64,000 bases of DNA from Picocystis sp. L7. Taxonomy: Eukaryota > Chlorophyta > Picocystophyceae > Picocystales > Picocystaceae. The notes under the pieces are model-generated. The model worked only from the letters and a program-made list of their open reading frames with translations, had not been told where the DNA came from and made no database searches. Every line of letters starts with the position of its first letter. Positions within the stretch are counted from its first letter, which is position 1. Position numbers and translations under genes: made by a program. The stretch is taken from the NCBI GenBank assembly GCA_020975725.1, contig QXJR01000006.1:744001-808000 (forward strand). Direction: 5' to 3'. Shown in pieces: positions 18,046-60,959 of this stretch.

Positions 18046-21000
18046 TCATCTGGTTTGATAAGGGAGAAAACGGAATGGCCAAGTGTTTTCCAAAATTGGC
18101 GATGGAAACTGCAAATATACCGATTCTTTATGCTGCTGTACTTGCGTAATATTCTGGGGCGTGATACCCTGTTCCGGTAAGGACCCGTTCGTCTCTTCGA
18201 AAGTTAGAATGTCATCCAGTAATGCAGGGGTTTCATCAATGAAGAAGTAGTGATTCGTAGTAGAGTCTGATTCAACCCAATAGCGAACAGTAGGAAAGTT
18301 ACTGAAATCGCGTAGTAAATACCTGCGTATGGGGTATTCCGCGTCAGTTGTTGGGACCGGTAGCAGCTCTGCCGATGGCAAGGTAGCCGAGGGAAACAAT
18401 GACAAATCAGAGTCGTGCCATATGGCTAGCCGATGAGCATTGAATCGATCGCTATAGGTGGATCCTGGAGGAAGTTTCAACCGGTATGCTCCATTCCCCA
18501 AATCTGTAGCAACGGTGAATGGGCCAACCCAGCAGGGATCCAAGTTGTCCTTGTCTGTAGGGGACTTTAATCCAAATTGAACTTTGACTTGCTGGCCAAC
18601 TTGAAAGGTACGTTGTTGGTTGCCCCGACGTTGATGCATTAATGCGCGTTGTTTATCGAGCATTTGCAGTACTTTCTGATACGTTTGCTTCTGTCTTTCC
18701 AAGAATGTTGTAACACGGGCATCCAGTGAAGGGACAAGGTCTGTGACAGGGGCGACATCGCCCACGGATGGCAACTGCAAGTGCCAAGGTAGTCTGGATC
18801 TGCATCCATATAGTAGCTCAAAGGGGGCGAAGCCAAGAACGGCATGTATGCTGTCATTGTAGCCGTGAGCTGCTGCTTGTAAAATATCATCCCAATCTCT
18901 TTTATCATTGCACATAGTGCGTATTGAAGTGAGAAGAGTTCGATGTTGTCTTTCGGCACCTCCTTGAGATTGTGAATGGTAGGGCGTTCCCGTAATGTGT
19001 TGAATTCCCAGGGCAGTACAAAATGCATCGAACAGTTTACGATACATTGGTCCATTATCTGTATGGATGTGTGTTGGACAGTGGTAACGATAAACCACAT
19101 GATCCAATAATAGCGTTGCTTGTCGAAAGGCACTCCAGCAAGTGTGTATAGGAATATACACAGCAAATTTGGTAAATTTATCCACGATCGTGATAACGGC
19201 GTTGTGGCCTTGCCTAGAAAGAGGGAAACCTTCCACAAGATCAAGTACCACAATATGAAATGGGTGTGGATAAAAACGAGCTTCTGGAAACATGACCTGG
19301 TGTCGGGATTGCGTGCTTGGTTTCTGCAATTGACATGTAGGACATTGCTGAACAAAGGAGGTGCACTGTTTCTTGTACCCATGCCAGTAAAAGTGACGAC
19401 GAAGCTCGGCCCATGTGCGGGCCTGTCCAAAGTGAAATTTGTCATGGACCTCATGATGAAGGTCTTGTCGGAGAGACAGATCTGCAGGTATAACTAATAC
19501 AGCCGGGCCATGGTTAGCCTCCATGGGTTGCGGCTGAAGAAAGAGTAAATCTAAATGCTTGACATATTCAGTCGGTGGTTGCTTCAAGTTCCGAACATAC
19601 TCCGGATCGGCCTGAGCTGCTGTTCTTATGCGTTCAATAAGTGGCACTACGGTAGTGTCGGAGACAGCAGCAAGCTGATGTTCTAGTGAGGCAGTCCCTA
19701 CGGTGGGGCTAGCTTCGGCCAAAGCGTGTTCAGGCGTTGTTGAATTGGGAATTGTATCATCAACGTCAGCTGTCAAGGACATGGAATCCTGCACATGCAA
19801 ACTGTGGCGCGCTAGCAGTCTAGATGCTTGTGTATACAGGTGGATTCCTTTGCGTTGATGAACCAGCCCCAGTAGTATAGGAGGGGGAGGTTTCCGTAAC
19901 ACCGCGCTGAGCATTGGGGCAATCCAACCCACAGGGAAGGCATTGCCACACATATGATGGCGAGCTCCATCGCAGACCCCGTACGCTTGCGTATCATTGG
20001 GCTTCATACCCGTCAGGGGTTCCTTTTCGCGAATCGTTAGTGGTCTTAATTCATGGTCTGAATTATAGACCCAGGTGGATTTTGATCGATCCGAATGTGA
20101 GTTCTTTGAGGCCATAAGAGTGGGGCATTTACTGATAAGTATGCCATAATCATCAATAGGTGGGGATGATTCTGCATCCAAACATTCTTGCCAAGTATAG
20201 GGGACCCCTCGATACCGATATTGAGCGGTGTGGCTGTCCAGGCTTACAGTGGTCCAAACCAAGCGTTGGCGTGCCTGGGCCGAGAAATTGCTCATATCAT
20301 GGTGTTCTGGTGCACCAAACCATTCTTGTACCTGTTGCAGGTGGGTATCCAGGTGTCGAGCGAACGGGGTGCATTCAATGATGTAATTGGCACCAGGCAA
20401 CCTATCCAGCAGGGCTCGTACTGCGCTAAAGAGTTCTGGTGCGTCCAACAGTCCCAGGGGTGATGCTTCTGTATTAGTGTTAGCCCTGGAAAATGGTTGG
20501 CAGGGTGCACCGGCGATAACCAGATCTACGCGGGGAAGGCGGCGGCGTCCCTTTAATATCTGAACATCATTCCCAAGACGAAACATGTCTGTGCGTACAA
20601 ACATGGTTGGGGCTGCGAGCCGCACATAGTTAAAAACCCGTTGTATAACCAATCTGCATAACGGGTCGCGTTCGACTGCGATGTAATCAATGCGATGGTT
20701 TGAGTTGCAGGTTAATTCTAAAGCCCGTAGAACAGTGCCCATTCCACCGCACAAGTCCAATATGCAGAAGGTTGGAATTTCTTCACCCTGGATTGGAGGG
20801 TGTCTTGAAAGATAGTCTGCCGGCACATTTTCTTTGCCTGGGCGGTACAGAATCTCAAACGGTGCAAAGAACTGTAATTTTTCCATCCATCGTATGACGC
20901 GTTGGCTAAGCTGCTCTGTTCCCTTGGTCTGCAAGTAATGTGCAACCTTGCTATCAGTCAGAATCGTAAAGGGCTGACCAAATAATAGATGCTGCCAATG

Positions 21001-22479
21001 CTGCAGGGCATAGATGATGGCACAGGTCTCCTTCTCAGCGGGGTGGTAACTCCTCTGAGATGAGTTCCACCGCCGGGAGTAATATTCAACTGGTTTCCAA
21101 TCGTGGTTCTCTGCAGATTCTCGGTGAGGACATTGGGATAATACTGCACCCATACCAGCATCCGATGCATCTGTTTCTACCCGAGTCGGTAGGTCTGGAT
21201 CATACAAAGCAAGGACAGGATTGGACATGAGTGCTTGGCGTAACTGCACAAAGGCTCGGTCACATTCTGAGTTCCAATAATCTGCAAAGTCCAGCTTGTA
21301 TGTCTTCTTGTTTAATTCCACCAGCGGCGCGGCTAATTCCACATATCGGTCGAGAAATCGACGGTAAAAGTTGCATAGCCCCAAGAAGGCTAAGTTCTGC
21401 TTCTGCGTATGTAGTTTTGGAAAGCGTCTGATTTTATCGGTCAAAGTTTCAGTTGGGGTAATCTGTCCATTCCCTATTTTGAAGCCTATCCACTCCAAGT
21501 TGGTGTAGAAGAAGTGGCATTTGCTTGCTTTTAAGCGAATGTCATTTGCAGCACAAACTGAGAGGAATTCCTCCAGGTGCTGAAAGCGGGACTCTACTGT
21601 GGATGAATGTACCAATATATCATCCATATATACTTTGGCATACATCAGGTGTCCAAAGATGCGGTTCATCATACGTTGGAAAGCCGCAGGAGCGTTGGCC
21701 AACCCCATTGGCATCACTTTCCAAACATAGGAGCCTAACGGTGTGTTGACTGCAGTTTTTTCTATACTATCAGGACTCATGGGTAGTTGATGAAAGCCAT
21801 CGAGAGCATCGAACGCTGAAAATAGCGAGGCTGCTGTAAGTTGTTGCAGGTAATCATCAATACAGGGCAAGGGATATCGGTCCTTGATAGTGACACTGTT
21901 GAGGTGCCTGTAATCGAAGACGATACGCCAGCCCTTGTCCTTCTTGGGGACCAGAATTACTGGTGCTCCCCAACTTGACCCTGAGCATAAGTCCATCTTG
22001 CCTGAGTCTACGTACTCAGCAAGCATCTCACGCAAAATATCCAGCTGCTTTGGGGATATGCGATAATAATTCCTGTAAATAGGAGTTGTTCCGGGTTGTA
22101 CCGCAATTTTAAAGCTCTCTCCTAGTATGCGTTCTGTCGGAGGGCTCATTCTGGGCTCGAAACAAATTGTATATTTCTCCTTCAATTCTGTAAGTCTTAG
22201 CTGTTGGGACGGGGTCAGCGGATACTGTCCACTGAGCCTGGAGCGCTTTAACGCAAAGTCTTCTGCTTCTGCCTGTAGCTCCTTTGATGGGTCCAAGGGC
22301 TGTATCATTAAATACAGGCACCCTGGTGTTTGTATAACCTTCGGTACCTCTCCAGGAGGCACAATAAGATCCAGTTTTCGTTTCGTTATAAAATCCCCAT
22401 CACCACTAACCGTGTGCAACTGTCCATGCTGATCACGCAAGTGCAATTGTCGGTTTGCGAAGTCAGGTATGCGAACCAA
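18046..22479 (-). CDS. Gypsy-A pol: RT, RNase H, DNMT3-like methyltransferase, integrase
   Basis: A pol frame of 1477 codons of a Gypsy fossil. RT is at about residues 120-300 (VYMDDILVH) and RNase H at about 390-520 (VETDASDAGMGAV; VPADYLSRHPP). The methyltransferase domain spans about residues 571-860 (about 19.9-20.77 kb): motif I LDLCGGMGTVLRAL, motif IV APCQPFSRANT, motif VI IIECTPF, a late block LTIREKEPLTGM, motif X MCGNAFPVGW. An integrase zinc-binding segment (CPTCQLQKPS) and core (HTDNGPMYRKLF; YHSQSQGGAERQHR) follow, then a GPF-type C-terminal region (WVGPFTVATDLGNGAYRLKL). The gene order RT-RNase H-methyltransferase-integrase is not a standard Gypsy layout. Confidence 0.9.
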   Translation of the reverse strand: MVRIPDFANRQLHLRDQHGQLHTVSGDGDFITKRKLDLIVPPGEVPKVIQTPGCLYLMIQPLDPSKELQAEAEDFALKRSRLSGQYPLTPSQQLRLTELKEKYTICFEPRMSPPTERILGESFKIAVQPGTTPIYRNYYRISPKQLDILREMLAEYVDSGKMDLCSGSSWGAPVILVPKKDKGWRIVFDYRHLNSVTIKDRYPLPCIDDYLQQLTAASLFSAFDALDGFHQLPMSPDSIEKTAVNTPLGSYVWKVMPMGLANAPAAFQRMMNRIFGHLMYAKVYMDDILVHSSTVESRFQHLEEFLSVCAANDIRLKASKCHFFYTNLEWIGFKIGNGQITPTETLTDKIRRFPKLHTQKQNLAFLGLCNFYRRFLDRYVELAAPLVELNKKTYKLDFADYWNSECDRAFVQLRQALMSNPVLALYDPDLPTRVETDASDAGMGAVLSQCPHRESAENHDWKPVEYYSRRWNSSQRSYHPAEKETCAIIYALQHWQHLLFGQPFTILTDSKVAHYLQTKGTEQLSQRVIRWMEKLQFFAPFEILYRPGKENVPADYLSRHPPIQGEEIPTFCILDLCGGMGTVLRALELTCNSNHRIDYIAVERDPLCRLVIQRVFNYVRLAAPTMFVRTDMFRLGNDVQILKGRRRLPRVDLVIAGAPCQPFSRANTNTEASPLGLLDAPELFSAVRALLDRLPGANYIIECTPFARHLDTHLQQVQEWFGAPEHHDMSNFSAQARQRLVWTTVSLDSHTAQYRYRGVPYTWQECLDAESSPPIDDYGILISKCPTLMASKNSHSDRSKSTWVYNSDHELRPLTIREKEPLTGMKPNDTQAYGVCDGARHHMCGNAFPVGWIAPMLSAVLRKPPPPILLGLVHQRKGIHLYTQASRLLARHSLHVQDSMSLTADVDDTIPNSTTPEHALAEASPTVGTASLEHQLAAVSDTTVVPLIERIRTAAQADPEYVRNLKQPPTEYVKHLDLLFLQPQPMEANHGPAVLVIPADLSLRQDLHHEVHDKFHFGQARTWAELRRHFYWHGYKKQCTSFVQQCPTCQLQKPSTQSRHQVMFPEARFYPHPFHIVVLDLVEGFPLSRQGHNAVITIVDKFTKFAVYIPIHTCWSAFRQATLLLDHVVYRYHCPTHIHTDNGPMYRKLFDAFCTALGIQHITGTPYHSQSQGGAERQHRTLLTSIRTMCNDKRDWDDILQAAAHGYNDSIHAVLGFAPFELLYGCRSRLPWHLQLPSVGDVAPVTDLVPSLDARVTTFLERQKQTYQKVLQMLDKQRALMHQRRGNQQRTFQVGQQVKVQFGLKSPTDKDNLDPCWVGPFTVATDLGNGAYRLKLPPGSTYSDRFNAHRLAIWHDSDLSLFPSATLPSAELLPVPTTDAEYPIRRYLLRDFSNFPTVRYWVESDSTTNHYFFIDETPALLDDILTFEETNGSLPEQGITPQNITQVQQHKESVYLQFPSPILENTWPFRFLPYQTR

Positions 22480-22919
22480 ATGGGCGGCGCAGAAGTCATA
22501 GCCCAGAATACAATCAACGGAGTTCAGGAGGGTGATGCCAAAAGGGGACCCAGGCTACAAATGTATCTAACTGGATCCTGGCATTTATGATCTGTGCTTG
22601 GTGGGTGTTTTCTCCCACTGCACATTCAAAATCAAAGTATTCTGTGGTATATTGCCAGGTCTCACCATTGGTGTCTCTAGTCCGTAGTTTGTCAAATATT
22701 GGAACACTTAAAAAGCTGAAGGAAGCGAAAGTGTCAAAGTAGGCTTTGGTACTGACCAAAGAGTCACTTGTACCAGAGAAAGCCGCTGCTGTGAGGAATT
22801 CTAGGCGAGGACCTGAACGGGTCGCACGCAGGCTCACTGTTTTTCCACGAAATCTGTTCTGGAGAGGTCCTTCCTCTCCCGCTCCATACTAGCAGCCTGG
22901 TCTGTTGGTTGGAGCTTAC

Positions 22920-35884: not shown

Positions 35885-36486
35885 TTCGAACTTGCCGACG
35901 CTTTCGAGCTCCGGCTACCCTCCGCATCAAAGTCCAATTCAATTTCGATTCGCTTTCGACACATTTCCGTCAGTTTAAGGGCGGAAGATTGTTGAAACGA
36001 ATGCTAATTCATCTAGGGTTTACAGCTCTACTTCCAAGACCGAGTCCTTTGACCGAGGGGAAAGAACAATCGACGGCTCGCCACGTGGATTGTCGACGAC
36101 ATGACCAGCGACGAACAAAGTTCGTGCAAGACCAAACCATTGAATTCAACGTTGATCTGTCGAATACACTCAAGTACATCAATGTGAATACATTGGACGG
36201 AATCGAACACCTGCGACTATTTAAGAGCGCAGTGCATGCCTTGTATTACAGCACTTTGACGAAGTCACCACCTCCACACTAGAATTCTCTTGTCATCGAG
36301 CAAACACATCGAAACTCGTTGTCGAAGGACAATGAACACATTGAAAAAGCAGAGAGGGGCATCAACTACCCACGCACTAGCGAAAGAAATACTGTATAGT
36401 GGTTCGGGACCACGTCACAACAGTGCGTGGAAAACAGAATTTAAACTCAGAGAAGTTTGATAATTTTCAACAACGATTCCCTAATT
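35885..36486 (-). repeat. SINE-like dispersed repeat (copy 1, about 36030-36430) and flanks
   Basis: About 400 bp matches the repeat at 49545-49945 in inverted orientation. The shared core (CACTCAAGTACATCAATGTG) translates to nearly the same peptide in both copies (LKYINVNTLDGIE). On the minus strand the end near 36430-36360 aligns with the tRNA-like head of the other copy, but its B-box-like sequence is degraded. The rest of the interval is upstream sequence of the kinase-like gene. Confidence 0.5.
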
Positions 36487-37119
36487 GTTGAATGGATCCG
36501 CTGTTTAACCGCAAGGTTAACAGGCAGCGTTGGAGGACCTGGGTTCGTGAAGGTCCTTGGGAGTTCGGAGCACGGAGGTGCACGGAGGAGCGAGGTTGGA
36601 AAGAGTGTAGTACATGCATTCAAGGCGTGGTCCCTTAGGCCCTACTAACCGCCACAGTGCCTACGTGGCATTGTGGATCGGGTATTCTATGCACAGCCAT
36701 GGTCGAACTTGCGGCTGTCCTGGTCGGAGGGGACGACCTGCACGAGCAGTCCCTCCGAGAATAAACTCCGTTGAACGGGTCCTCCACTTCACTTTTCCAT
36801 GCTCTCCCTTAGGACCTATTTCATTGCTTGTTAACTTTAGGTAACTGCACAAGTCCAATCTGCTTGACACTGGCACCAAATTTCTAAACACTGGTGGGTT
36901 TTGTGGGGAAATCTGCCAACATTTCCGTCGTTGGGCAGTATTTGAACTACACCTCACGTCTCATAATCCTCTCACGGACGAAGTGGTGAGCAATGTCAAT
37001 ATGTTTTGTCCGCTGGATGGACTTCACATCATTCAGCATCTTGATGCAGGCCTGGTTATCACACTTCATGTTACCAGTGTGAATTTGGCCCCTGGAGTTA
37101 AGTCCATTAATTGACCTCT
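36487..37119 (-). mobile_element. Copia-2 family 3'-end fragment
   Basis: Near-identical, base for base, to 14464-15088: LTR edge with the hairpin block (36493-36546), the rest of the LTR, and the end of RNase H up to CCATTAATTGACCTCT. It stops abruptly at the Gypsy-C LTR at 37120. The high identity implies recent duplication or transposition. Broken fragment. Confidence 0.85.
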
Positions 37120-37882
37120 TGTTGCGCCCAGCCCTCTCGAGACACCTATCTTGCCGAGGTTCTCCTTCGACGATGAGGAGTACTCCCCCAATTGCGAGGC
37201 TCTTGAGAGGTTCTCAACCATGTTCGGGCAATTTACTTGGGACTTGTTTGCATCCGCGCACAATGCCCAATGTCCGACCTTCTTCACATGGGCGACCAAT
37301 GCTCTCGCCCAAGAATGGGCTAGTCTCGGCAACTTGTGGGCACACCCACCTTGTTGCCTCATAGATTCCATGGTGGGCAAGCTCGAGGCCGAACCAAGAG
37401 CCCTTGTGACCATGATTACTCCGCATTGTCCAAAGGCTCGTTGGTTCCCTCGCTTGCAGCATCTCGCTACCTATTAGGTGGTACTAAGGAGGCATGAGGG
37501 AATAATCTCGGATGCCCGAGGAAGGCCCTTGCCTTCCCCTCACTAGGATGTCCTCCTCACCCATGTCCCTAGGCGGATGCAGGGCCAGGACTAACCCCGA
37601 AAAGGGACCGGTTTGTCCCCCTATCTAATAACGCTATGTGGCCGATGAACCGGATAAATGCGTGGCTCAGCCACGGGCGGATTCCCGAATGGAGCTAAGA
37701 TGTAATATCAATTGCGGCGGAGGGGAATGAGAACACGACAACGTTCCTCGACGTTCCGCCTAGCGGTCCCGAGCACCGCGGTGACACGAACGCACGAGCG
37801 AACAAATGCGAACACACGTCGACGCCACTACCATCGTCGTCTTTGCGCCACAGGAGAAGGAGGTGGCCGCGCAAGCGCCACA
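37120..37882 (+). repeat. Solo LTR of Gypsy-C (second copy)
   Basis: 763 bp, TGTTGCGCCC to GCGCCACA, more diverged than the copy at 1391. The flanks CCTCT and ATCCA do not match, so this is a rearranged junction rather than a clean insertion: the left neighbour is Copia-2, the right neighbour is the Harbinger remnant. Confidence 0.85.
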
Positions 37883-37965: not shown

Positions 37966-38547
37966 TGTAGCGTCCAAGTAGGGTCGCGGACAGGGGACAC
38001 TTGTACAAGGAGCGAGTTGCGGCTCTCAGCAGTCGTTGAGGTCCTGGAAGAGGCTGATGAGGCGAGGAGGTCGTCTCGGAGGACAAGTAGAAAAGTGAAT
38101 TGCAAGGCAAAGAGAGGGACTGGAGGTCCGTCTCTCAAAACCACTCAGTGGCGGTTGAGATGAGGGCAAGTGGGGCACAAGGAGGGTCCACGTGCTGCTG
38201 ACGGTCAAATCTGACCGTCCGTGCAGCTAGCCGTGGGGCGTCCGCCAGCTGTCCGAGTCATCGACACCGTCCAGCCTCCCCAGCCCTACCTTCTAGAAGT
38301 ACACGGGGAAAGGGAATCCTTTCGACTCAACTCTACCGGTCAAGGGTTCCCTTCATCCCTTACTGAAACATGTCCATTGACCCGGGGCGTTCTGCATCTA
38401 TTCCCGGGCTCTGTTGACCCACATTCAATCCAGACCCGGATCTATGGTATAACGGTAGTAGGGAACAGTAAGGCAATGACTGCCCTTTCACTCCCCAAAG
38501 TCTCGGGGTCTTCACGCAGGGTCTCGTAGGGTCCCTGCTAGGCTACA
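37966..38547 (-). repeat. Gypsy-B 3' LTR
   Basis: 582 bp, almost identical to 44870-45451, with a GTAT duplication on its outer side. Confidence 0.93.
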
Positions 38548-38578
38548 TTCTCCTGGCTCCTGTCAGGTCACTGACACA

Positions 38579-39514
38579 TCAGACGTGAAGAAAGTCATAC
38601 ACATAACTGATGGGGTCATATAGCATCGCACGTATCTCAGCAGCTGTATAACTTTGCTCGATCCCATCAGTCCAGCGCACGCAATAGTTTTCACCCGATG
38701 TGCCAATCACAATGCCTTGAAAGTATGCTTGTGTGCCATCGGAGGCATGAAACAACTGTTGCACCACTGCCTGTTGCAGGTTATGGGGTGACTTGTAAGT
38801 CGGTCTTCGTCGGGTCTGGAATGGTAGCTTTGAAGAAGTCCAGGTGTTCACTAATATAGGTGCTGGATACTGTAAATATACTTGGTGTTTATGCTGTTCC
38901 ACTTTCTCAAGGTTAGAGGCAGTAATGCCCTGTTCGGGAATGCAGCCATTGTTTTCCTCCAGCACCAAAAACTCATCTAGTAGTTCACTAGTTTCATTGA
39001 CCCACATGTAGGGTTCTGTAGTTGAAGTTGTCTTGACCCAATAACGAACAGGCTGTTGGGGGAAGAGGTGATAGTCTCTCAATAGATAGCGCTGTATGAT
39101 TACGGCGGGTTCCACGTTGGCATCCACGGGAAGGGAGGTGGATGCACCAGTAGGTTCTTGTGAAGGGAAGAGCGTTAAATCCGAATCAAACCACGGTGCC
39201 AAACGGTCAGCATTGAAGCGGTCAGAATAGGGCGAATCAGGGGGCAGTTGTAGCCTGTAAGCCCCTTTTCCCAAGTCTTCAGTAACGGTGAATGGACCGA
39301 CGTAGTATGGGTCCAGTTTGCGTTTATCAGTTGGCCCCTTCAGGCCATACTGGACTTTCACTTGATCACCAACCTTGAAAGAGCGAGTCGGTAGTTGTGA
39401 ACGCAGAGCCTGGAATTTCTCAGCTTGTTTATGCAAATGTTCCAGCATGGTTCTGTACAATTGTCGCTGTTTGTCTAGTAGGACAGTAACCCGTTGGTCT
39501 ACTGTGGATATCAT
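38579..39514 (-). CDS. Gypsy-B pol C-terminal part with GPF/Y and Tudor-like segments
   Basis: 311 codons of a fossil element. The GPF/Y region of chromoviral-type integrases is visible (YYVGPFTVTEDLGKGAYRLQ). The final part (AYFQGIVIGTSG, then YCVRWTDGIEQSYTAAEIRA) resembles a Tudor or chromo barrel. The same module closes Gypsy-A, C and D. Confidence 0.75.
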   Translation of the reverse strand: MISTVDQRVTVLLDKQRQLYRTMLEHLHKQAEKFQALRSQLPTRSFKVGDQVKVQYGLKGPTDKRKLDPYYVGPFTVTEDLGKGAYRLQLPPDSPYSDRFNADRLAPWFDSDLTLFPSQEPTGASTSLPVDANVEPAVIIQRYLLRDYHLFPQQPVRYWVKTTSTTEPYMWVNETSELLDEFLVLEENNGCIPEQGITASNLEKVEQHKHQVYLQYPAPILVNTWTSSKLPFQTRRRPTYKSPHNLQQAVVQQLFHASDGTQAYFQGIVIGTSGENYCVRWTDGIEQSYTAAEIRAMLYDPISYVYDFLHV

Positions 39515-39538
39515 ATCTGTGAGACTCTCTGTATTGTC

Positions 39539-42500
39539 CTATAAGGTTAGGAACTGCAAGTGCCAGGCCAACCTTGAAGGGCATCCGAACAAAGCGACAA
39601 ACGGCGCAACTTTTGTAACAGGATGTACGCTGTCATTATAAGCATGGGCAGCTGCCTGTAAATAGTCATCCCAGTTTAAACGGTCATCGCACGTTAAGCG
39701 CAGCTGCTGTAAAAGAGCGCGATGCTGTCGCTCTGCACCTCCTTGGGATTGTGAATGATACGGTGTTCCAGTGGAATGCTGAACTCCCATTGCAGCGCAG
39801 AATGCCTGGAAAAGGTCGCGATACGCTGGCCCATTGTCAGTGTGAATGCGCTGCGGCGTATGGAAGCGGTACACGAGCGCATCTAGCAAGCATTGCGCTT
39901 GTCGGAAAGAACTCCAGGAAGTGTGTATAGCAATGTAGATCGCATACTTCGTAAAACGATCGACAACGGTAAGCACCCCATTATGCCCCTTGGCTGTAAG
40001 GGGCAATCCTTCGACCACATCCATTACCACTGTGTGAAATGGATAGGGATAAAACTTAGTCTCGGCAAAGAGGGGCTGGTGCCTAGATGTTGTTCCTGGT
40101 TTTTGCATCTGACAAGTTGGACAGCGCGCGACAAAGTGATTTATATGCTGTTTCATTCCTTTCCAAGTGAAGTGGCGCTTGGCGTTTGCGAAGGTACGCT
40201 CTGCACCGAAGTGCGCCTGGTCATGTACTAGGTGTAATAAGTCCTGACGTAAGGCGTCATTTGCGGGAACCAGTACCACAGCAGGGCCGTCGAAGACATC
40301 GATCTGATTTGGAGGGCTGACTTCAAAAAGCAGTCCATTGGTGGCACGCAAATGTGGGGGCGGCGATCGCAGCCATGCCTCATACTGAGGGTCAGATAGA
40401 GCGGCGGACCGTAGGCGCTGCAGAAAAGAGGGAATGCCCGGATCGGCTAACGCGGACAGGATTCTGGACTGTTTGCCTTGAACACACACAGCCTCGGTAA
40501 GACTGCGGCTAGCTAGCGGTCGAAGCGTCCCTGTGGGTGTTTTAAAGTAAAGGTCCAGAAGGTTGGCTATCCACGCTACGGGGAATGCATTGCCGCACAA
40601 CCGATGTCGCATGCTTGTTGAGACATTCTCGGCAGCTGTGTCTCCAATTTCCATCCCAACCAAGCGCTCTTTTTCTGCAACTGTCAGCGCTCTTTCAGTT
40701 CCATCTGAGTTACGTACCCATGTTGTCCGATTGCGGTCACTATGCGAGTTACTCGTGGCCATCAAAGTGGGGCATTTAAGAACGGGCTGGTTCATTGCCC
40801 CAGTAGGAACCGTAGCTCCATCGGTCAAACAATCTTGCCAGGTAAGGGGCAGACCGGGTACATGCCATATACGTGAATTGGACGGAAGCGAAGTCCAGCA
40901 GTACCTGCTCCTTTTCTGGGGGCAGTACTGGGACATGTCATGTAAGGCGGGCTCTCCAAACATTTCCGCAACCTGCTGAAAATCTTTGTAAAGGTGGCCT
41001 GCAAAAGGAGTACATTCGATGATATAATCTGGTCGACCAAGTCGGTTGTAAAGGGTATGTACCGTTGTAAAAAGTTCTCTTTCATCCCGCAGCCCATAAC
41101 TGGGGTAGTCTGGCGAGGTATTGGCTTTGGAGAACGGCTGGCATGGTACCCCCGCGATAAGCAGGTGGACAGGTGGTAGCTTTCTTCGATGCGCCAATAC
41201 TCGTACATCATTGCCATAACGGAAAATATCTGTGCGGTGAAAGAGTCTAGGTCGATCGAGGTTCACCTCAGCAAACACCCTCTGTATTACCTTTCGGGCA
41301 TGCTCTTCTATTTCGACTGCTATGTAATCAACTTGTATTGGATAGCCAGTTGGTATGAGATGCCACAGAGCTCGAAGGACTGTGCCCATACCTGCACATA
41401 AGTCTAAAATCCGGATGATGGGAGGACCTGTGCTAGGGGGGTTGCGCGATAAGTAATCTGCAGTGATATTTTGAGATCCTGGGCGGTACTCGACAGCGAA
41501 AGGTGCAAAGTATGCCAACTTCGCCGTCCAGCGCTGATCCCGGGGACTGAGTTGTTCTGCGGACTTGCTTTGCAAGTACATGCTGGCTTTGTTGTCTGTA
41601 AGGACAGTGAATCTCTGTCCAAAGAGAAGGTGCCGCCAATGCTGGAGAGCGTAGACGATAGCACAAGTCTCCTTCTCTGCTGGATGATAGTTCCTTTGTG
41701 CTGAATTGAACTTTTTAGAGTAATACTCAACTGGTTCCCAGATGTTGGGGGAGGTTTCTTGTAGTAGTACAGCCCCCATACCCAAATCCGAAGCGTCAGT
41801 CTCAACGCGTATAGGCCGGTCTTCATCAAATAACTGTAAAATAGGTCCAGTAGTGAGCATACGCACAAGGTGTTCAAAGGCCTGGTCATGTTGAGCCTTC
41901 CAGAAACGACAGAAGTCGTGGCGGTACTGTTTGCGAGTGAGCTCTGTAAGAGGTGAAGCAATCTCTGCATAATTGCGTACAAAACGCATGTAGAATTGAC
42001 AAAGTCCCAGGAATGCTAAGTTTTGTTTGTGAGTGACAGGTTTAGGGAACTTTTGTATGCGCTCCACCAAATGGTCTGCACAACTGAGCTGGCCAGCATG
42101 TATGCGAAAACCAACCCATTCCAGCGTTCGGTGGAAGAAGTGACATTTTGACTCTTTCAGTCGTATGTCGTTACGCTGGCATACCTCGAGGAAGTCTTCC
42201 AAATGTTCAAAGTGTTTCTCTTGATCTACAGAGTGTATCAATATGTCATCCATATAGACCTTTAAAAAGGGCAATGCCCCAAAAATTCGATTCATCATTC
42301 TCTGGAACATTGCAGGGGCATTGGCCAGACCCATTGGCATAACCCTCCATACATAGCTGCCGAAAGGAGTAACAACTGCTGTCTTGTCAACATCTTCTCC
42401 ATTCATGGGAAGCTGGTGAAAGCCGTCTAGGGCGTCTACTGATGAGAAGATACTTGACCCTCTCAAGTTCTGCAGGTGGTCATCTATTCGCGGCAGCGGG

Positions 42501-43612
42501 TAGCGGTCCTTAATTGTGGCTGCATTTAGCATTCGATAGTCGAACACGACCCTCCACCCCCCATCCTTCTTTGGGATGAGGAGGACAGGTGCCCCCCAAC
42601 TCGATCCCGCACAGACATCCATTTTCCCAGCGTCCACGTATTCGGTCAGCAGTTCGCGTAGAGCATCCTGCTGTTGTGGGGACAACCGATGATAGTTGCG
42701 ATGCACCGGCTGAGTACCAGGTTCCAGCTGAATCTTGAATGACTCACCGGGTACGCGTTCGCAAGGTAAGGTGGTACGCTTTTCAAAGCAGAGCGCGTAC
42801 TTGCTGAGCAGCTTCTGCAGTCTCTCTTGTTCGTTGGGTGACAGCGTGCAGGCATCACTGAGCTTACTGCGGAAGGTCGAAGTTTCTAGTTCTTCCGATG
42901 CTAGCTCACAGGTGACATCAAGAGGTTGCACCATTAGTAATAAACATCCTTCTGTTTGCATGGCCTCTTTGATTTCAGAGGGGGGCACTATAAGGTCAAG
43001 TTTACGGGCTTTTAAAAATGCTGTGTCGCCCTGTACTTTATGAACTGTCCCATTAGGATGTTTAAGTTCCATGTACTGATGCTGCCAATTTATGTGCAGC
43101 AAGAAGAGGTGGCAGAAGTCGACACCTAGTATGCATTCAAAGGTCTCAATGGGGGCCACAACAAAATAATGACTCACCTGAAAGGTATCGATTGTAATCT
43201 GTGCTTGAATAACTTGGGCCTGGTGCACTTCTGTCCCTATTGCTAAGCTGAAATCAAAGTATTGGCCAGTAGGCCTCCAATTCTGCTGTGTTGGGTCATG
43301 CTTCTTCAGTTTTTCAAAGTAATGAATGCTTAAGAAGAAGTTGCTGGCAAGCGTGTCCACGTACGCCTGTGTGGACAGGTCAGTAGGACCTGTAGGTCCA
43401 ATAGTACTACTGGCTGTGAGGAACTCACAACGGGGACGAGGGTTTGGCGACGCTCGTAAGGCTACCACCTGATCTGGGTATAAGTTGTTGAGAGTCAACG
43501 GATCAGACCTCGCGCTTGCGGGTGGCACCTCTCCTGGCTCCATCCCGACGGCCTCTTCCGTCGGGAGGAGCCTGTTCAGTTTTTTGGCATCATTGGCTGG
43601 GTGTGACGGCAA
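39539..43612 (-). CDS. Gypsy-B pol: protease, RT, RNase H, DNMT3-like methyltransferase, integrase
   Basis: A 1357-codon frame of a fossil element. The protease region is near its start (AYVDTLASNFFLS), RT has VYMDDILIHS, RNase H has VETDASDLGMGAVL and ADYLSRNPPS. The methyltransferase domain (about 41.42-40.56 kb) has motif I LDLCAGMGTVLRAL, then VDYIAVE, motif IV VPCQPFSKANTS, IIECTPF, KRSRYCW, KCPTLMATSNSHSDRN, LTVAEKERLVGM and CGNAFPVAW. This spacing and these motifs fit the DNMT3/DRM-like group (compare the IASE, SPCND and NPARKGL blocks of DNMT3). Integrase follows (CPTCQMQKPG; HTDNGPAYRDLF; YHSQSQGGAERQHR). Confidence 0.92.
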   Translation of the reverse strand: MPSHPANDAKKLNRLLPTEEAVGMEPGEVPPASARSDPLTLNNLYPDQVVALRASPNPRPRCEFLTASSTIGPTGPTDLSTQAYVDTLASNFFLSIHYFEKLKKHDPTQQNWRPTGQYFDFSLAIGTEVHQAQVIQAQITIDTFQVSHYFVVAPIETFECILGVDFCHLFLLHINWQHQYMELKHPNGTVHKVQGDTAFLKARKLDLIVPPSEIKEAMQTEGCLLLMVQPLDVTCELASEELETSTFRSKLSDACTLSPNEQERLQKLLSKYALCFEKRTTLPCERVPGESFKIQLEPGTQPVHRNYHRLSPQQQDALRELLTEYVDAGKMDVCAGSSWGAPVLLIPKKDGGWRVVFDYRMLNAATIKDRYPLPRIDDHLQNLRGSSIFSSVDALDGFHQLPMNGEDVDKTAVVTPFGSYVWRVMPMGLANAPAMFQRMMNRIFGALPFLKVYMDDILIHSVDQEKHFEHLEDFLEVCQRNDIRLKESKCHFFHRTLEWVGFRIHAGQLSCADHLVERIQKFPKPVTHKQNLAFLGLCQFYMRFVRNYAEIASPLTELTRKQYRHDFCRFWKAQHDQAFEHLVRMLTTGPILQLFDEDRPIRVETDASDLGMGAVLLQETSPNIWEPVEYYSKKFNSAQRNYHPAEKETCAIVYALQHWRHLLFGQRFTVLTDNKASMYLQSKSAEQLSPRDQRWTAKLAYFAPFAVEYRPGSQNITADYLSRNPPSTGPPIIRILDLCAGMGTVLRALWHLIPTGYPIQVDYIAVEIEEHARKVIQRVFAEVNLDRPRLFHRTDIFRYGNDVRVLAHRRKLPPVHLLIAGVPCQPFSKANTSPDYPSYGLRDERELFTTVHTLYNRLGRPDYIIECTPFAGHLYKDFQQVAEMFGEPALHDMSQYCPQKRSRYCWTSLPSNSRIWHVPGLPLTWQDCLTDGATVPTGAMNQPVLKCPTLMATSNSHSDRNRTTWVRNSDGTERALTVAEKERLVGMEIGDTAAENVSTSMRHRLCGNAFPVAWIANLLDLYFKTPTGTLRPLASRSLTEAVCVQGKQSRILSALADPGIPSFLQRLRSAALSDPQYEAWLRSPPPHLRATNGLLFEVSPPNQIDVFDGPAVVLVPANDALRQDLLHLVHDQAHFGAERTFANAKRHFTWKGMKQHINHFVARCPTCQMQKPGTTSRHQPLFAETKFYPYPFHTVVMDVVEGLPLTAKGHNGVLTVVDRFTKYAIYIAIHTSWSSFRQAQCLLDALVYRFHTPQRIHTDNGPAYRDLFQAFCAAMGVQHSTGTPYHSQSQGGAERQHRALLQQLRLTCDDRLNWDDYLQAAAHAYNDSVHPVTKVAPFVALFGCPSRLAWHLQFLTL

Positions 43613-44881
43613 TGTTTTGCGTCATGCCCGTAGCGTCTACACTTGATGCACAAGGAATTACTCTGACAGAGTTGAAGTTGGTCTTGAGAAAGACTGGCTC
43701 CCAAAGGCAGACTTTTCATCTGTGTCTGCGCAGCCACTATCTTTTTTTGAAGTTCCTCCGATAAATCTCTGAATCGCTTGGCGGCCCGTCCTTCGATCGA
43801 TCGTACATTGGGGCTGTAGCTCCCTTCCTTGTGAGGTAAGGCATGGACCGTGGCCACAGATTTGGCTCCATGACTATTTTGATTGAGCGGCCTGGCCGTG
43901 CGTGAAACGCGCCGAGCTTTCTCTCTGTCCTGGGCTTCCACCTTCAATGCGATGGCTGCTAGGCCCCATGGGGACACATCTGGCTTGCGTTCCAAATCAA
44001 CCATCAGTTGCATGTGTTGCTCCACCTTATTGCCAATGTCATATGGCAGGCCGATGCGTAACCTGGTGGCGATGTCATTCTCCTCAACCCTTGGACAGGT
44101 GGGGTCATCACTCATATTTATCACAAAACTCAGAAGAAGGAGTCGGTTCAAGTAAGTGATCACATTCTCCCTGTTTTGACGAAACCGAGCTCGCTGAAAC
44201 TCTTTCCAAGCATCAGGCCTTGGGTCTCTCCTTTGAAAGGTCTCCTTGAGTAGACTGAAGGGACGGTAAGTTTGGAACGCGCTCCCGATCAGCCATGATA
44301 ATATTATCGACCATGATGCGGGCTGTGCCTGTCAAGGTCTGGAGAGCTAGTACTACCTGCTGAGTTGGATCGCTCGCGTAACCTTCAACCCAACAGGCAA
44401 CCTCCCTATACCAGTGGGTGAGTGCATATGGGTCATCTATCACTTCCGTTCCAGAGAAGCTTTTTGGCTTGGACAATGCCACTCCTTGCAACCGGTGGGA
44501 GCCTTCCATAGATTGGTACATCTTGGTGAGTGAATGAAGTCCTTGTTGGCTCAATGGTTGCATAGCCCGGTGGGAAGCATTCCCAGCTGCCTTCTCATTG
44601 GGTTCAACTGATGGTGGAGTAGGTCCATTGTCCTCGCGAGGGAAATCCTCTTCCCCAAGCGGTTCTTCTTCTTGCACTTGCGGGTCTTGAGCGGGGGTGT
44701 CGTTACGCAAACGACGTAGTTGACTTTCCAACTCCTCCACTTGCTGAGCAAGGGCGGATCGAGCTTGTTGCTCACGTTCCAACTCACCTCTCAACCGTTG
44801 CATTCGTGTGGCGGTTCCGGAGAGGAATTCTTCCTCCGAGTCGCTCATCGCCAAGCGAGGCTTCGACAATGTAGCGTCCAA
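43576..44881 (-). CDS. Gypsy-B gag region
   Basis: Gag region of a fossil element. An N-terminal coiled-coil-like stretch (QARSALAQQVEELESQLRRL), an acidic linker, a capsid-like part and a C-terminal CCHC knuckle (CIKCRRYGHDAKHC) are visible. The likely ATG (MSDSEEEF) lies about 25 bp inside the 5' LTR boundary, an unusually short leader. Confidence 0.7.
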
Positions 44882-45451
44882 GTAGGGTCGCGGACAGGGG
44901 ACACTTGTACAACGAGCGAGTTGCGGCTCTCAGCAGTCGTTGAGGTCCTGGAAGAGGCTGATGAGGCGAGGAGGTCGTCTCGGAGGACAAGTAGAAAAGT
45001 GAATTGCAAGGCAAAGAGAGGGACTGGAGGTCCGTCTCTCAAAACCACTCAGTGGCGGTTGAGATGAGGGCAAGTGGGGCACAAGGAGGGTCCACGTGCT
45101 GCTGACGGTCAAATCTGACCGTCCGTGCAGCCAGCCGTGGGGCGTCCGCCACCTGTCCGAGTCATCGACACCGTCCAGCCTCCCCAGCCCTACCTTCTAG
45201 AAGTACACGGGGAAAGGGAATCCTTTCGACTCAACTCTACCGGTCAAGGGTTCCCTTCATCCCTTACTGAAACATGTCCATTGACCCGGGGCGTTCTGCA
45301 TCTATTCCCGGGCTCTGTTGACCCACATTCAATCCAGACCCGGATCTATGGTATAACGGTAGTAGGGAGCAGTAAGGCAATGACTGCCCTTTCACTCCCC
45401 AAAGTCTCGGGGTCTTCACGCAGGGTCTCGTAGGGTCCCTGCTAGGCTACA
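44870..45451 (-). repeat. Gypsy-B 5' LTR
   Basis: 582 bp, the partner of 37966-38547. The outer flank GTAT matches the other side. Confidence 0.93.
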
Positions 45452-54599: not shown

Positions 54600-57500
54600 C
54601 ATCCAGGTGAGTCCTGCTGGGTCTCACTTCTTTGAGGAAACTGGAAATTGGGCTGAAGATATACCCCTTAATGCAGCCGTGCATGGCGCACGTTCCGATG
54701 AAACAGTCTCAGATATGAGTAATTACCATGTGGACTATGCGAGGGAGCGGTCCGCGTTTGAGTTGAGTGATTTGACAATTGGGGCTGGGGAGAACCCCCC
54801 AACATCCTCCTATCCACGGATTGTGGTGAATTTGGCACAATTTGGAGGGTTGACCTTTATCAGGCCTTCCTATGTTGAAGGTACAGAGTTGAGAACATTG
54901 TGGGACACCGGTGCAGGGTGCTCCTATATTCACAGAGAATTCAGTGCTTTAGGTACCATTGCCAGCAAAGCGCACTTTGTGCGAAGCGTGTTCGCCAACG
55001 GCCAGGCGCACACGTCCAACGAACTTTTGCAGATTTCAGTTTCTCTTGGTCCGTTTGATCTGCCGTTGGAAAAACATATTCCGATAAATATAAAAGTAAT
55101 ACCTATGGATCTACCAAAGAACTTTGATATGATCCTGGCTTGTGATGTTATGAAACAACTTCAGGCTTCGCTGGACATCGAGCGAAACACCATTCAGTTG
55201 AGTCATCGCGGACGGATCGTAACCCTGGTCATGGACAAACACAAGAAAGTAGAGACGACCTCCGTCAACAGTCTGTCATCAGTAAGCGTAACGACTGCAG
55301 AGCTGACTGCTCAACACCCAACTTCTTTCAGCACTTTGGGCCATTCAGTAACACCTTGTTTGTCTCCGCAACAGCGGGGCTGGCAACCCTCAATTATGAG
55401 GAGCCTGTTGAGGCTTTGGAACAAAACTGGACAGAATTGCCTGGACCGATACTCTGCGTTCCGCCGTTAAGACTACCGCCCCAGGTTACGCAGAAATTAC
55501 GAGCTTCGACACCTATGGATCTGGTCCTGTTGACGCCGTATCTACCCCGGAGTCCATGGTTTAGGGAACTACAGCCCCTGGTGCAAAAGGGTAGGGTGGT
55601 TCCATCAGCAGACAGGGCTTGTATGCAACAGATAGAAACTTATGGACACAGTATCCGTGCCTGTGAAATGGTAGCTTTGCAGATCAATCGCAACAGCAGT
55701 GTAGAGGTAAGGACGCTAGGAACGATCCAAGTGAACCGTCCAACAGTCACTCGGGAGGCCGTCGAGGGACTTCAACTGCCCGAGTCGCTGGACGCAATAC
55801 AGCAACAGCAATCAAGACACCTGCTGCTCAAATATTTGCACCTCATGCAACCACCAGGTGACGATGAACCACCGCCGCCGCCATCGGAATTCGACCATCG
55901 TATCGTCCTCACGGAGGGAGGGTCACGGCGAGTACAAACCCGACCGATACGCTTGGCCGCTGACCAAATTATTGAGTTACAGAAGCGATTTGAACATCGA
56001 TGCAAGCGTGGGATTATGCAACGGGCGGCCAGCGACAGCGAGACCTGCAGATCTGCAGTTTTCATGGTGAAGCGTAAGGATGGACCTGATCGTGACGTCG
56101 TGGACTTTCGAGCGTTAAACGATGTTACAGTTAAGGATCATTTCCCTCTACCTCTCATTGAGGAACTACTGGATCGATTAAGTCTGGCTCGCTTCTTCAT
56201 AAGCCTAAACCTGAAAGAAGCCTATTACAACATACGCATGCATCCGGACAGTGTGAGGTACACTGGCACCATCACTCACTTTGGTCTATTTGAATGGTTG
56301 GTGTTGGTTATGGGCATGTGCAACGCCGTTGCTACATTCCAGCGTATGATGGATGCTAGATTTCATCACCTCATATATGACAAGCGCACAGTCGCTTGCT
56401 ACCTCGACGACCTGCTGATCTACGCGGATAGTTTCCAGGTCATCTTCGACACACTTGAGCAGGTGCTTCAGATTTGCGATCGGTACCGGTTCCGACTGAA
56501 TATGCAAAAAAACACCTGATTTCAGACTCAACTTACATACCTGGGGCATGTAATTGGGGAGGGACAGCTACGACCGGACCCCAGACTGATAGGGGCAGTG
56601 AGAGAATTTCCTCAACCCAAGACGCCAACGCAGTTGCGATCTTTCTTGGGGCTGGCAGGTTATTACAGAAAATTCATTTCTCGCTTCTAGGAAAAGGCGG
56701 CTCCGCTTTACGAACTAACTAGGCCGATAGAACCTTTGGCTGCTCGTTGGGATGAGCGAGCAGAATCGTTGTTTGTTGAGTTGAAGTTAGCGTTAACTTC
56801 AGAACCTGTTCTTAGGCTCCGGACTCCAGGGTACCCAATTGAGCTTCACACCGATGCGTCTAATGTTGGCCTGGGAGCTGTGTTGCTCCAACAACACAGC
56901 CGTGGTTGGCACCCCGTGGCTAATTGGAGTAAATCGCTTCAGGGTGCGCAGAAAAACTATACTACCACTGAACTGGAAATGCTAGCTATTGTCCTAGCAT
57001 TGCAGACATGGCGGCATTACTTGCTGGGAATCCCCTTCGTTGTTCGCACGGACCATCAGGCACTGGTGCATTATCTGAACAAGCAGCCAGCAAAGCTTCA
57101 GCAGCGCGAGTTATCGTGGTTACCCCGGCTCGCCGATTTCCAGCTCACCATAGTGTACAAGCCTGGAAAATTCAAGTTGCCGCCCGATGCGCTGAGCCGC
57201 GGACGTTCTGCGCTTCACCTCACTGTGCTCGATTTATGTGCAGGGACAGGAACAGTAATCCGCAGCCTGGTCCATGCAGTACCAAACCATGTTCGCATCA
57301 ATTATATTGCAGTTGAAAACAATGCAGATTGTCGCACTGTTATTCAGAGAATCTTCAGTTCAGTTCAGCGCGACCGTCCAGGTCTCTTTCTACGCAAGGA
57401 CATATTCCGCCTGGGTCATGATGTTAAGGACCTGGTAAACAAGAAACTGCCTGCAGTGGACCTCATCATAGGAGGGGTGGCATGCCAACCTTTCAGTAGA

Positions 57501-60032
57501 GCGAATCCTGCTCGCAAGGGATTGTAGGATGACCGCTCGGTATTTCAAGTTGTGCAGAAACTACTTATGCACAGCTGAGCTACCTTTTGTGCAGTTGACT
57601 GCACCCCGTTTGCCCAGCACTTGCGAAAAGATCTGGAAGTGGTGCAGCAATGGTTGGGGCAACCTATCCAGCATGACTTAAGTCAGTGGTCAGTAGAGCA
57701 GCGCACGAGGCTGCTTTGGAGTAATCTCGACACTGAAAATATGAAGCCGCTGTTGAAGGAAATTGTCTAGCCGCTTACTTGGCAGGCCTGTCTCCAATCA
57801 GGTTGGACAGCGCCGTCCGAAAAAGCCCCGACGCTGATGGCCAGCTGGGACAACACCCATAATGTCCGAAATGGTCAGTCTATGATTCAACAACAGGGTA
57901 CCACTATCACCAAGCAGATGGCTCCCGAAGAATGAGAATTATTCGTTGGGCTCCAGCCAGGAGACACACCAACACCAGGGTTGGATAAATCCACCAGGAA
58001 CCGTATGCTCGGCAACGCGTTCCCTGTCTCCTGGATAAACTCCATCATTCGTATCTGGATCAACACCGTCGACATCGATGATGTACAAGCAGCAGCATGC
58101 TATCCTCTTCCCTCACCCGGGGCACAGGATAGTCCTTTTTACCAAGCTGAGAATACTACTTTGCAACCTCTGCAATCAGTACTCACAGCAGTCGACATTG
58201 GTAAGATTAGCCGACTGGATGCGCTACTTGCGAAAGCGGCATCGATGGACGCAGACTATCAGAAACTTCAGGAGACAGATACCCTGCAGAAACAAGATGG
58301 AATGATGTATAAGGTCAGCAAGGGGCAGAAAAGGTTGTATGTTCCTAACAACCGCACAATTAAGAACCTCATCCTGATGACCACTCATGATTTGCCGTAC
58401 GCAGGCCACCCAGGAGTTCATAAAACCACTGAACTGCTAACGCGACGATATTACTGGCCTGGAATGCACGAGGACGTCAAATCCTACTGCAAACAATGTT
58501 ATGCTTGCCAACTGGGCAAAATCAGCCGGCAGCGCAGCAAGACCATTCTCCATCCTACAGACCATGGGTCGTACCCAAACCGCTGGGTAACACTGGACAT
58601 AGCGATGGGATTGCCGCCCAGTCACAGTTACAATGCAGTTCTGGTTGTCGTAGATCGGTTTACCAAATACACCGTCTACATTCCTATCACCACCAGCATC
58701 ACTGCGTCCGAATTAGCCTTTCAGTTTGAGCGTCACTGGGTTGCTAAACGCGGATGCCCCAGCAACTTGATCATGGACCGAGACACAAAATTCACCTGCG
58801 CGTACTGGCGCGATTTCATGGAGACCTTGGGTGTCACGGCCATGCTTACAACTGCTTACCATCAGCAGTCTGATGGTCAGACGGAACGTCAAATCGCAAC
58901 GCTAGCAGACCAACTGCGGGTCGCGCTTATAGATACTTTCAGTGCTGATGACGATTGGTATCGATGCCTGCACATCGCAGAATTTGCGACCAACAACACT
59001 GTGCGAGCAACAACAGGGGTCACCCCTTTTCAGGCAGAGTTGGGTCGCCATCCAACCATGCCCTTCTATTTGCTGCCCGGACCCAGCAACCTTACCATCG
59101 ACAAGCATGTAGCTGAATTGTGCAAATACAGCAGGACGATATATCGTCTTATGGCGATCAATCTCGCCAAGGCTGAGGAACGCATGCAGTATTTCAGTAA
59201 CCGTACGCGAACCAGTAAGACATTTGCAAAGGGAGAAATCGCTAAGCTGCAGGGAGGACGTGCGACACGCAGTGATCAGCATAAATTACAGCCACGCTTC
59301 CGGGTTACCGAAATTGTCCGCTCTCTGGGCAAAAATAATTATGAGATCCGCTTGCCGGAGGGCAGCAACATACACCCCGTCGTGCATGCTGACAAACTGG
59401 AAAAATTTTGGACAACAGACCCTACAAAGTTTCCGTTGGCTCAGCAACCTGGACCGGCAGTGCTACCGCCAGATACGTCACCGCAACCAACCGACCAAGC
59501 GCAGAAATACCCTGTCAGAAAATACCTCCTGCGCAACTGGAATTCAGTGCCACCCAGATACTATGTTCAATGGGATACCCCTGCCAAAGAATTGGGGTGG
59601 GCATATGAAGACGATGCGCTGATCAGCGACGTCGCTGTCTACGAAAAAGTGAATGGAATCCTGCCAGAAATTGGTATCACTGCTGCCAACAAGGCTGCAG
59701 TTCTCAAGCACAAACGCGTCAAACTTCAGCAAAAATCACCCATCGTTCAGAACACGTGGACTGGCAAAGCTCCATGGGCAGCAGCTATTGGACGTGCGTC
59801 CACCGTGAAACTTCCAGGTTTGCAAACATTGCCTGCAGCTAATCTGCACAGAATAGTGCAGAAACGCTTTGAGGAACAGGGACTTCTCATGTATTACGCT
59901 GGACAGGTCGTCGCCACCCCCAAAACTGGTACTGGACGATACACCATCCGTTACACCGACGGATACGAAGAAGCTGTCACACATCAAGAATTGGACAGGC
60001 TCCTTTATCGAGCCTCCGCTAGGATAGATTAA
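54600..60032 (+). CDS. Gypsy-D pol region: protease, RT, RNase H, methyltransferase, integrase, Tudor-like tail
   Basis: Fossil pol region, described by parts. Protease near 54.9 kb. RT about 55.9-56.5 kb (FPLPLIEELLDRLSLARFF). RNase H about 56.8-57.2 kb. The methyltransferase begins LTVLDLCAGTGTVIRSLVH, then NYIAVENNADC and VDLIIGGVACQPFSRANPAR, strongly recalling DNMT3 (IGGSPC, NPARKGL), and its last block RMLGNAFPVSW lies near 58.0 kb. Integrase has its zinc finger (CKQCYACQLGK) and core (MDRDTKFTCAYW; YHQQSDGQTERQ). The end has YYAGQVVATP and YTIRYTDGYEEA, the Tudor-like module. Confidence 0.85.
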
Positions 60033-60357: not shown

Positions 60358-60959
60358 AATTCGAGCAAGTACGAGCAAGGCGAGACATAGCCTTGTTGTA
60401 GGTCCATGATGACATTGCCAACACGTGAGTCGACCATCACGTGTGCCACTTCCTCCTCCCACATTGCTCAAAAGTCATCCCTGCCGCTTTCCTTGACGTC
60501 CACGCCGTGTTCAAGCCTTGCGCTCTCTTGGACGTTGAGGAAGGCCTCCTCCAATCGTACCTCTGTAGGTGGAAGTACCAAGTCGTCGTCCCCACCGGCA
60601 TCAATTGTAGTGGCTCTATCTCCCTCGGTGGCTCCGCACTACGCTTCTTCTTCCAATGGTTGCTCCACAACCCTTTGATGCTTCACCGTTCTGTCGGCGA
60701 CCAACCATTCCTCCGTCGACATGCGCGATGCGTGGCAACAAACGATGGCCTCCTGCTCTCCCGTACGTAAACGTACAAGGCGGAGCACCACGTCGTCATA
60801 ACACCTGACGCTCCACGCCTCCCCATGCGCTTCACGGGCCCAATCTTCGCCAAAATCGGCTGCTAGAATATCAACGTGCGTTCCGAGGAGAGGATCGAGC
60901 GGCCGTTGTAGGCGTTGCTTCCGCCCCTACGCCATGTGCGATCCCGTCTGAAAAGTCGT
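60358..60959. other. Spacer between Gypsy-D and Gypsy-C
   Basis: No gene supported. Overlapping frames around 60.4-60.77 kb show no motif. It may be remnants of the sequence into which Gypsy-D inserted. Confidence 0.4.

What the first reader, a model, noticed from the sequence alone, without database searches (positions are those of the whole stretch)
39539..43612. DNMT3-like cytosine methyltransferase inside a young Gypsy pol, between RNase H and integrase
Seen: motif I LDLCAGMGTVLRAL, VDYIAVE, VPCQPFS, IIECTPF and CGNAFPVAW in one frame with RT and integrase, in an element whose LTRs differ by under 1%. Known: capture of cytosine methyltransferases by retrotransposons has been reported in some algae and dinoflagellates, so the principle is not new. 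The DNMT3-like type, this position in pol and this host may be. Inference: the element may methylate its own cDNA or insertion site, to evade or to recruit host silencing.
Basis: partly seen in the sequence, partly recalled or inferred. Interest (0 to 1): 0.92.

Follow-up and report, generated by a model that had tools for sequence, protein, structure and literature searches.

The report
Jumping gene carrying DNA-methylating enzyme
A copy-and-paste mobile element in a small green-alga genome carries its own DNA-methylating enzyme, and most of its many relatives there do too, so the element may chemically mark its own DNA; elements of this kind were already known from a few other organisms.

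The parts
37966..45451 (-). whole Ty3/Gypsy LTR retrotransposon, 4-bp target duplication ATAC
   Evidence: LTR pair; ends and duplication
44870..45451 (-). 5' LTR (582 bp)
   Evidence: 99.3% identical to the 3' LTR, 4 mismatches, no gap
37966..38547 (-). 3' LTR (582 bp), preceded by a purine-rich tract
44213..44881 (-). Gag-like ORF, first part (222 aa)
   Evidence: position only; Pfam gives just sub-threshold Mis12 and ZapB matches
43576..44163 (-). Gag-like ORF, second part, with CIKCRRYGHDAKHC (CCHC knuckle pattern)
   Evidence: sequence directly; no Pfam hit; motif type recalled
39539..43612 (-). pol ORF, 1357 aa
   Evidence: domains
42101..42577 (-). reverse transcriptase (RVT_1)
   Evidence: Pfam E 5.5e-35, coordinates
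41507..41827 (-). RNase H (RT_RNaseH)
   Evidence: Pfam E 2.4e-33, coordinates
40532..41422 (-). DNMT3-type C5-cytosine methyltransferase domain
   Evidence: coordinates
40097..40258 (-). integrase zinc-binding H2C2
   Evidence: Pfam E 7.2e-18, coordinates
39752..40042 (-). integrase core (rve)
   Evidence: Pfam E 1.5e-15, coordinates
38579..39514 (-). ORF with SH3_Tf2-1 domain downstream of integrase, a separate ORF in this copy
   Evidence: Pfam E 7.4e-10
19885..20775 (-). same domain in a second element of the window (open frame 18049-22554, 1502 codons)
57213..58073 (+). same domain in pieces in different frames, in a third element (pol match 55914-59045)

Best explanation
An old Ty3/Gypsy lineage in a green alga carries a catalytically complete-looking DNMT3-type cytosine methyltransferase as a fixed module of Pol, between RNase H and integrase (shown by sequence). 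Most likely Pol is packaged in the virus-like particle, RT and RNase H make the cDNA, the methyltransferase adds 5-methylcytosine to that cDNA, and integrase inserts a pre-methylated copy (inferred). The benefit would be that incoming DNA looks like host DNA to whatever attacks unmodified extrachromosomal DNA, and that host maintenance enzymes keep the mark, tempering damage to the host (inferred).
Against: No enzymatic or methylome data. Motif VI reads ECT in 42, ECV in 7, ECM in 1 and the usual ENV in only 2 of 52 rows, which could weaken activity. KnitGypsy DNMT gave no activity in the published yeast assay (called inconclusive there). Private C-to-T/G-to-A changes among nine near-identical copies are not enriched at CpG: 4 of 376 sites against 33 of 1591 elsewhere, p 0.29. 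CpG observed/expected of the elements sampled, 0.62-0.92, lies in the range of the four host genes measured, 0.61-0.90. A sister Gypsy family has many copies without a recognisable C5 domain.
Confidence: 0.5

Rival explanations
1. The domain acts during or after integration on the target site: it methylates flanking chromatin or helps integrase settle in already silent regions, so insertions do little harm and persist.
For: It sits next to integrase in Pol. 68 of 158 domain places lie on C3 and C4, which hold 11.6% of the genome.
Against: Clustering may come from weaker purging there. The Dam-type family, without a recognisable C5 domain, clusters too: of its 25 RNase H places, 17 are on C3 or C4. 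SymbioDIRS-Dnmt3 was active in yeast with no preference beyond CG.
Confidence: 0.25
2. The domain is a non-catalytic structural or nucleic-acid-binding spacer whose fold is kept for Pol processing or DNA binding.
For: EC(T/V/M) in place of ENV in 50 of 52 rows. In the Dam-type family the same slot holds an insert with at most weak similarity to the domain (8 of 200 shuffles score as high).
Against: The catalytic Cys, Glu and Arg residues are in 52 of 52 rows, not expected of a mere scaffold.
Confidence: 0.15
3. The substrate is RNA, for example element RNA or the tRNA primer.
For: DNMT2 shows that this enzyme fold can methylate RNA (recalled); the authors of PMC5890265 raise it for SymbioLINE.
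Against: Nearest solved relatives are the DNA enzymes DNMT3A/3B; the host DNMT2-like row falls on the other side of the tree.
Confidence: 0.07

Closest known systems
KnitGypsy-Dnmt3 of Klebsormidium nitens (de Mendoza et al. 2018, PMC5890265; passages read)
   Same: LTR Gypsy element with a non-rearranged Dnmt3-related domain in the Pol ORF, intronless, under purifying selection.
   Different: Its figure legend gives a DIRS-like repeat structure, here two plain LTRs with target duplication; it is said to have fewer copies than Symbiodinium, here 158 places in 20.5 Mb.
SymbioDIRS-Dnmt3 and SymbioLINE-Dnmt of Symbiodinium (PMC5890265; passages read)
   Same: Retrotransposon-borne DNMTs; SymbioDIRS is Dnmt3 and in Pol.
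   Different: Other retrotransposon classes (tyrosine recombinase or LINE).
Dam- and Dcm-encoding Ty3/Gypsy and DIRS elements of algae, as mentioned in PMC6338049 (passages read)
   Same: Methylase-bearing retrotransposons, green algae named.
   Different: One summary sentence without sequences or domain type; whether it covers elements like this cannot be told.
Animal DNMT3A/DNMT3B catalytic domain
   Same: Fold and motif order.
   Different: About 27% identical in the structure alignment; PCQ not PCN, ECT not ENV.
Plant DRM (host copy L033:3437-4642)
   Same: DNMT3 branch.
   Different: DRM is permuted; the element domain is not.

Membership tests
Ty3/Gypsy LTR retrotransposon | LTRs with TG...CA ends and target duplication | tested here: met
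Ty3/Gypsy LTR retrotransposon | pol order RT, RNase H, integrase | tested here: met
Ty3/Gypsy LTR retrotransposon | primer-binding site complementary to a tRNA 3' end next to the 5' LTR | not tested
   sequence after the LTR starts TTGTCGAAGCC; not compared with host tRNAs
DNMT3 family | C5-methyltransferase motifs I, IV (PC), VI (E), VIII (RxR), X (GN) in the usual order | tested here: met
   motif names recalled
DNMT3 family | nearest to DNMT3 rather than DNMT1, DNMT2, CMT or other C5 enzymes | tested here: met
   DRM left out of the tree because permuted; DNMT5 and DNMT6 not included
DNMT3 family | de novo methylation of DNA | not testable with these tools
   needs enzyme assay
DRM | permuted order, motifs of the C-terminal part first | tested here: not met
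   element match continuous over profile 1-295; host DRM split 244-293 then 3-129
KnitGypsy-Dnmt3 | Gypsy Pol ORF with Dnmt3 domain | tested here: met
KnitGypsy-Dnmt3 | same clade of element and domain by sequence | not tested
   KnitGypsy sequence not available; searches list no hit named Klebsormidium, but most hits there are unnamed
SymbioDIRS-Dnmt3 | tyrosine recombinase, DIRS repeats | tested here: not met
   rve integrase and plain LTRs

The most novel reading that the evidence does not exclude
In this algal lineage a DNA-modifying enzyme is a standard part of Gypsy reproduction: of 150 scored RNase H places, 119 have a C5 methyltransferase in Pol and 25 of the other 31 a Dam-like domain in the LTR, and none of the 119 has a Dam match at that distance. 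That pattern would fit a host system that attacks unmodified cDNA, a eukaryotic analogue of restriction and counter-modification, with the elements switching the modified base.
Probability: 0.17. Interest if true: 0.88.

Novelty: new variant of a known kind. Interest (0 to 1): 0.55.

Why it matters
Why a mobile element should carry the enzyme that makes a mark used to silence such elements is unsolved. A compact genome with about 158 such places, several deep subfamilies, near-identical young copies and a sister family that lacks the enzyme gives a clean comparison: methylomes of C5-type and Dam-type copies in the same cell would tell whether the enzyme marks the element's own DNA. Among the host methyltransferase genes I found there is no unpermuted DNMT3 (introns could hide one), so activity of that type might come from the elements alone.

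Tried and rejected
Viral or phage origin: best phage match 30.6% over 68%, six IMG/VR loci at 28-31%, PHROG 116 (E 9.6e-16) and 363 show only general C5 kinship; no recent source there. Recent capture from the host: the domain profile scores 22.5 bits on the permuted host DRM and 8 bits or less on the other four host genes; rejected. Free-standing donor: the third protein search gave 27 hits; P0110-P0113 (E 7.1e-7 to 4.8e-4) are free-standing C5 enzymes of unstated origin, the other 23 score E 7.7e-14 or better, several with RNase H or integrase domains, and the two I read (P0092, P0106) are element pieces; no donor found.

Pairwise dN/dS was uninformative: only 1 of 253 pairs had synonymous distances in range, and in that pair the domain stood at 0.375. 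I used a codon model instead (searches printed no omega; a first pass printed 0.029, 0.046, 0.083). One search was invalid because I had not turned minus-strand loci; redone. Decayed methyltransferase in the Dam-type family: the model of the insert is unusable (pLDDT 34.7), hhalign gives P 0.028-0.036 with 8 of 200 shuffles as high: unproven. Host name: EukProt calls the identical DNMT1 Pavlova lutheri, but the gene set is green; species not settled. Literature on C5 enzymes in retrotransposons: in the open PMC library (two found nothing; 42 and 82 listed 20 of 26 and 20 of 70). Judged from titles and abstract starts, only PMC5890265, works citing it and PMC6338049 bear on it. Subscription papers and Repbase reports were not searched.

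Full report
What is there. The minus strand at 37966-45451 is an LTR retrotransposon: 582-bp LTRs with 4 mismatches and no gap, ends TGTAGC...GCTACA, a 4-bp ATAC duplication and a purine-rich tract before the 3' LTR, Gag-like coding with a CCHC pattern in two ORFs, and a 1357-aa pol ORF with RVT_1, RNase H, DNA_methylase, Integrase_H2C2 and rve in that order. A Tf2-1-like SH3 domain follows in a separate ORF. Of the eight other copies at 97-99% identity, six lie in 1680-codon frames (one with a stop inside the match), two in shorter ones; the window copy has about 1360 codons. So this copy is interrupted while longer open frames exist elsewhere.

Catalytic state. Of 66 sequences with a profile hit, 52 full-length ones were aligned, 32 of this genome and 20 external; choosing full-length rows favours intact ones. 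The catalytic Cys of PCQ, the motif VI Glu, both Arg of RxR, the Gly-Asn of motif X and a motif I Gly are in 52 of 52. Motif VI reads ECT in 42, ECV in 7, ECM in 1 and ENV in 2 rows. Roles of these residues are recalled knowledge. The codon model gives final omega 0.084 for the domain, 0.024 for RT, 0.031 for RNase H over 22 sequences: strong constraint, looser than RT. Synonymous sites are saturated, so these values are rough.

How widespread. The domain search scored 127 places in the 20.5-Mb genome at 49-100% identity, 111 without a stop inside the match (the tool scores only its best candidates, so counts are lower bounds). Joining these with 47 of the 121 rows (the other rows were host genes or, judged by eye, the same places) gives 158 distinct places, 68 on C3 and C4, which make up 11.6% of the genome (binomial 2.5e-23, treating places as independent). 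Of 150 scored RT_RNaseH places, taken as Gypsy, 119 have the domain within 1.1 kb downstream on the same strand. Of the other 31, 25 have a Dam-like domain (PF05869) 2.67-2.99 kb downstream. None of the 119 has a Dam match within 4 kb downstream; three have one at 4.1-5.1 kb, beyond the element's expected end. One further domain copy, C18:155214, shares an open frame with a Dam match that by its 8.1-kb spacing looks like the LTR of a neighbouring Dam-type element (not inspected). Six places have neither domain; I did not inspect them.

The sister family. Its longest pol frames have about 2670 codons and end in a Dam-like domain. That domain lies inside the LTR: in one element the 764-bp repeats C3:606458-607221 and C3:614581-615344 differ at 1 of 764 positions, have GAGT at both outer sides, and the first holds a Dam match. 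23 pairs among 101 Dam matches are about 8.1 kb apart, the LTR spacing. Whether the domain is active is unknown. At the RNase H/integrase slot these elements carry an insert that might be a decayed methyltransferase, but the evidence is weak.

Age and origin. 10 of the 11 starred groups of the domain tree (30 rows) recur in the tree of RT+RNase H (32 rows); the eleventh is unresolved there, and the RT group L044+L045 is not recovered by the domain. The tool flags long branches and an unsettled bootstrap. Metagenome relatives fall inside the subfamilies of this genome, for example P0002 beside the window element in both trees. The domain was therefore on board before the subfamilies split and, I infer, before related hosts did; the deepest groups are 33-37% identical in the domain. 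Relatives come from metagenomes and one EukProt set. Host genes found with PF00145 are DNMT1 with RFD and BAH, a CMT-like enzyme with a chromodomain and a BAH match just under its cut-off, a PWWP-bearing enzyme, a short one that I call DNMT2-like by its PPCQPYT motif (recalled), and a permuted DRM. No unpermuted host DNMT3 turned up among the rows I looked at.

Host. The DNMT1 is 100% identical to a protein labelled Pavlova lutheri in EukProt, but the other named relatives listed are green algae and land plants. The tree, which holds no haptophyte, places it outside the sampled trebouxiophytes, ulvophytes and chlorophyceans. Chromodomain CMT and DRM are green-plant enzymes. I read the label as a wrong or mixed culture (inference). 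PMC12344493 (passages) restricts DRM to streptophytes; this host has one, so it is a streptophyte or an exception.

How it may work. Shown: an intact-looking DNMT3 module fused in Pol, long co-inherited and constrained. Inferred: it is packaged with RT and integrase, methylates the cDNA, and the copy integrates already marked. Published support is activity of SymbioDIRS-Dnmt3 in yeast and the same proposal by its authors. Against it, nine near-identical copies show private C-to-T or G-to-A changes at 4 of 376 CpG positions, 14 of 457 CHG and 19 of 1134 CHH; CpG is not enriched (p 0.29), CHG only slightly (p 0.08). Element CpG ratios are like those of four host genes; one Dam-type polyprotein stands at 1.01. 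These tests are weak because the copies are young and few.

Novelty. De Mendoza et al. 2018 report Dnmt3 in the Pol ORF of a Gypsy element and in DIRS elements (abstract, passages, discussion); PMC12344493 repeats that DNMT3 members sit in retrotransposons of streptophytes and dinoflagellates. PMC6338049 mentions Dam- and Dcm-encoding Ty3/Gypsy and DIRS elements in green algae among others (passages). PMC9998398 found no DNMT3 in green algae of MMETSP (passages). I found no report of such dominance among Gypsy elements, of the ECT variant or of an LTR-encoded Dam-like domain, which aimed at C5 enzymes; I made no search on Dam-like domains in LTRs as such. Hence a new variant of a known kind.

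Noticed in passing
window 1391-2154, 37120-37882, 60957-61713; G000:C3:606458-607221 and 614581-615344: 764-bp LTRs of another Gypsy family encode a Dam-like (PF05869) domain, and a 2672-codon pol frame ends inside one. 101 matches in the genome, 23 pairs about 8.1 kb apart, the rest possibly solo LTRs.
   Followed up: partly
window 18049-22554 (-) and about 55914-59045 (+): Two further methyltransferase-bearing Gypsy copies; the second has its domain in pieces in different frames.
   Followed up: partly
L034:3519-4262 (-): Insert of about 210-250 aa between RNase H and integrase of the Dam-type family, possibly a decayed methyltransferase; statistics weak.
   Followed up: partly
L033:3437-4642 (-): Permuted DRM methyltransferase in this algal host, matching solved plant DRM chains at E 7.5e-38 and 9.1e-29, although PMC12344493 restricts DRM to streptophytes.
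   Followed up: partly
L024:3938-7009 (+): Host C5 methyltransferase with a PWWP domain, probably the ChloroDNMT class named in PMC12344493.
   Followed up: no
P0034 (EukProt record): A EukProt set labelled Pavlova lutheri holds a DNMT1 100% identical to that of this green-alga genome.
   Followed up: partly
G000:C4:1048782, 1055931, 1063080: Three domain matches exactly 7149 bp apart on one strand, suggesting a tandem array of elements.
   Followed up: no
G000 contigs C3 and C4: Both contigs carry far more than their share of Gypsy copies, as in outlier or sex-linked chromosomes of some picoalgae (recalled comparison).
   Followed up: no
window 14463-15097 and 36486-37120: 635-bp repeat, 98.9% identical, part of it matching sequence next to a Dam-type LTR.
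   Followed up: no
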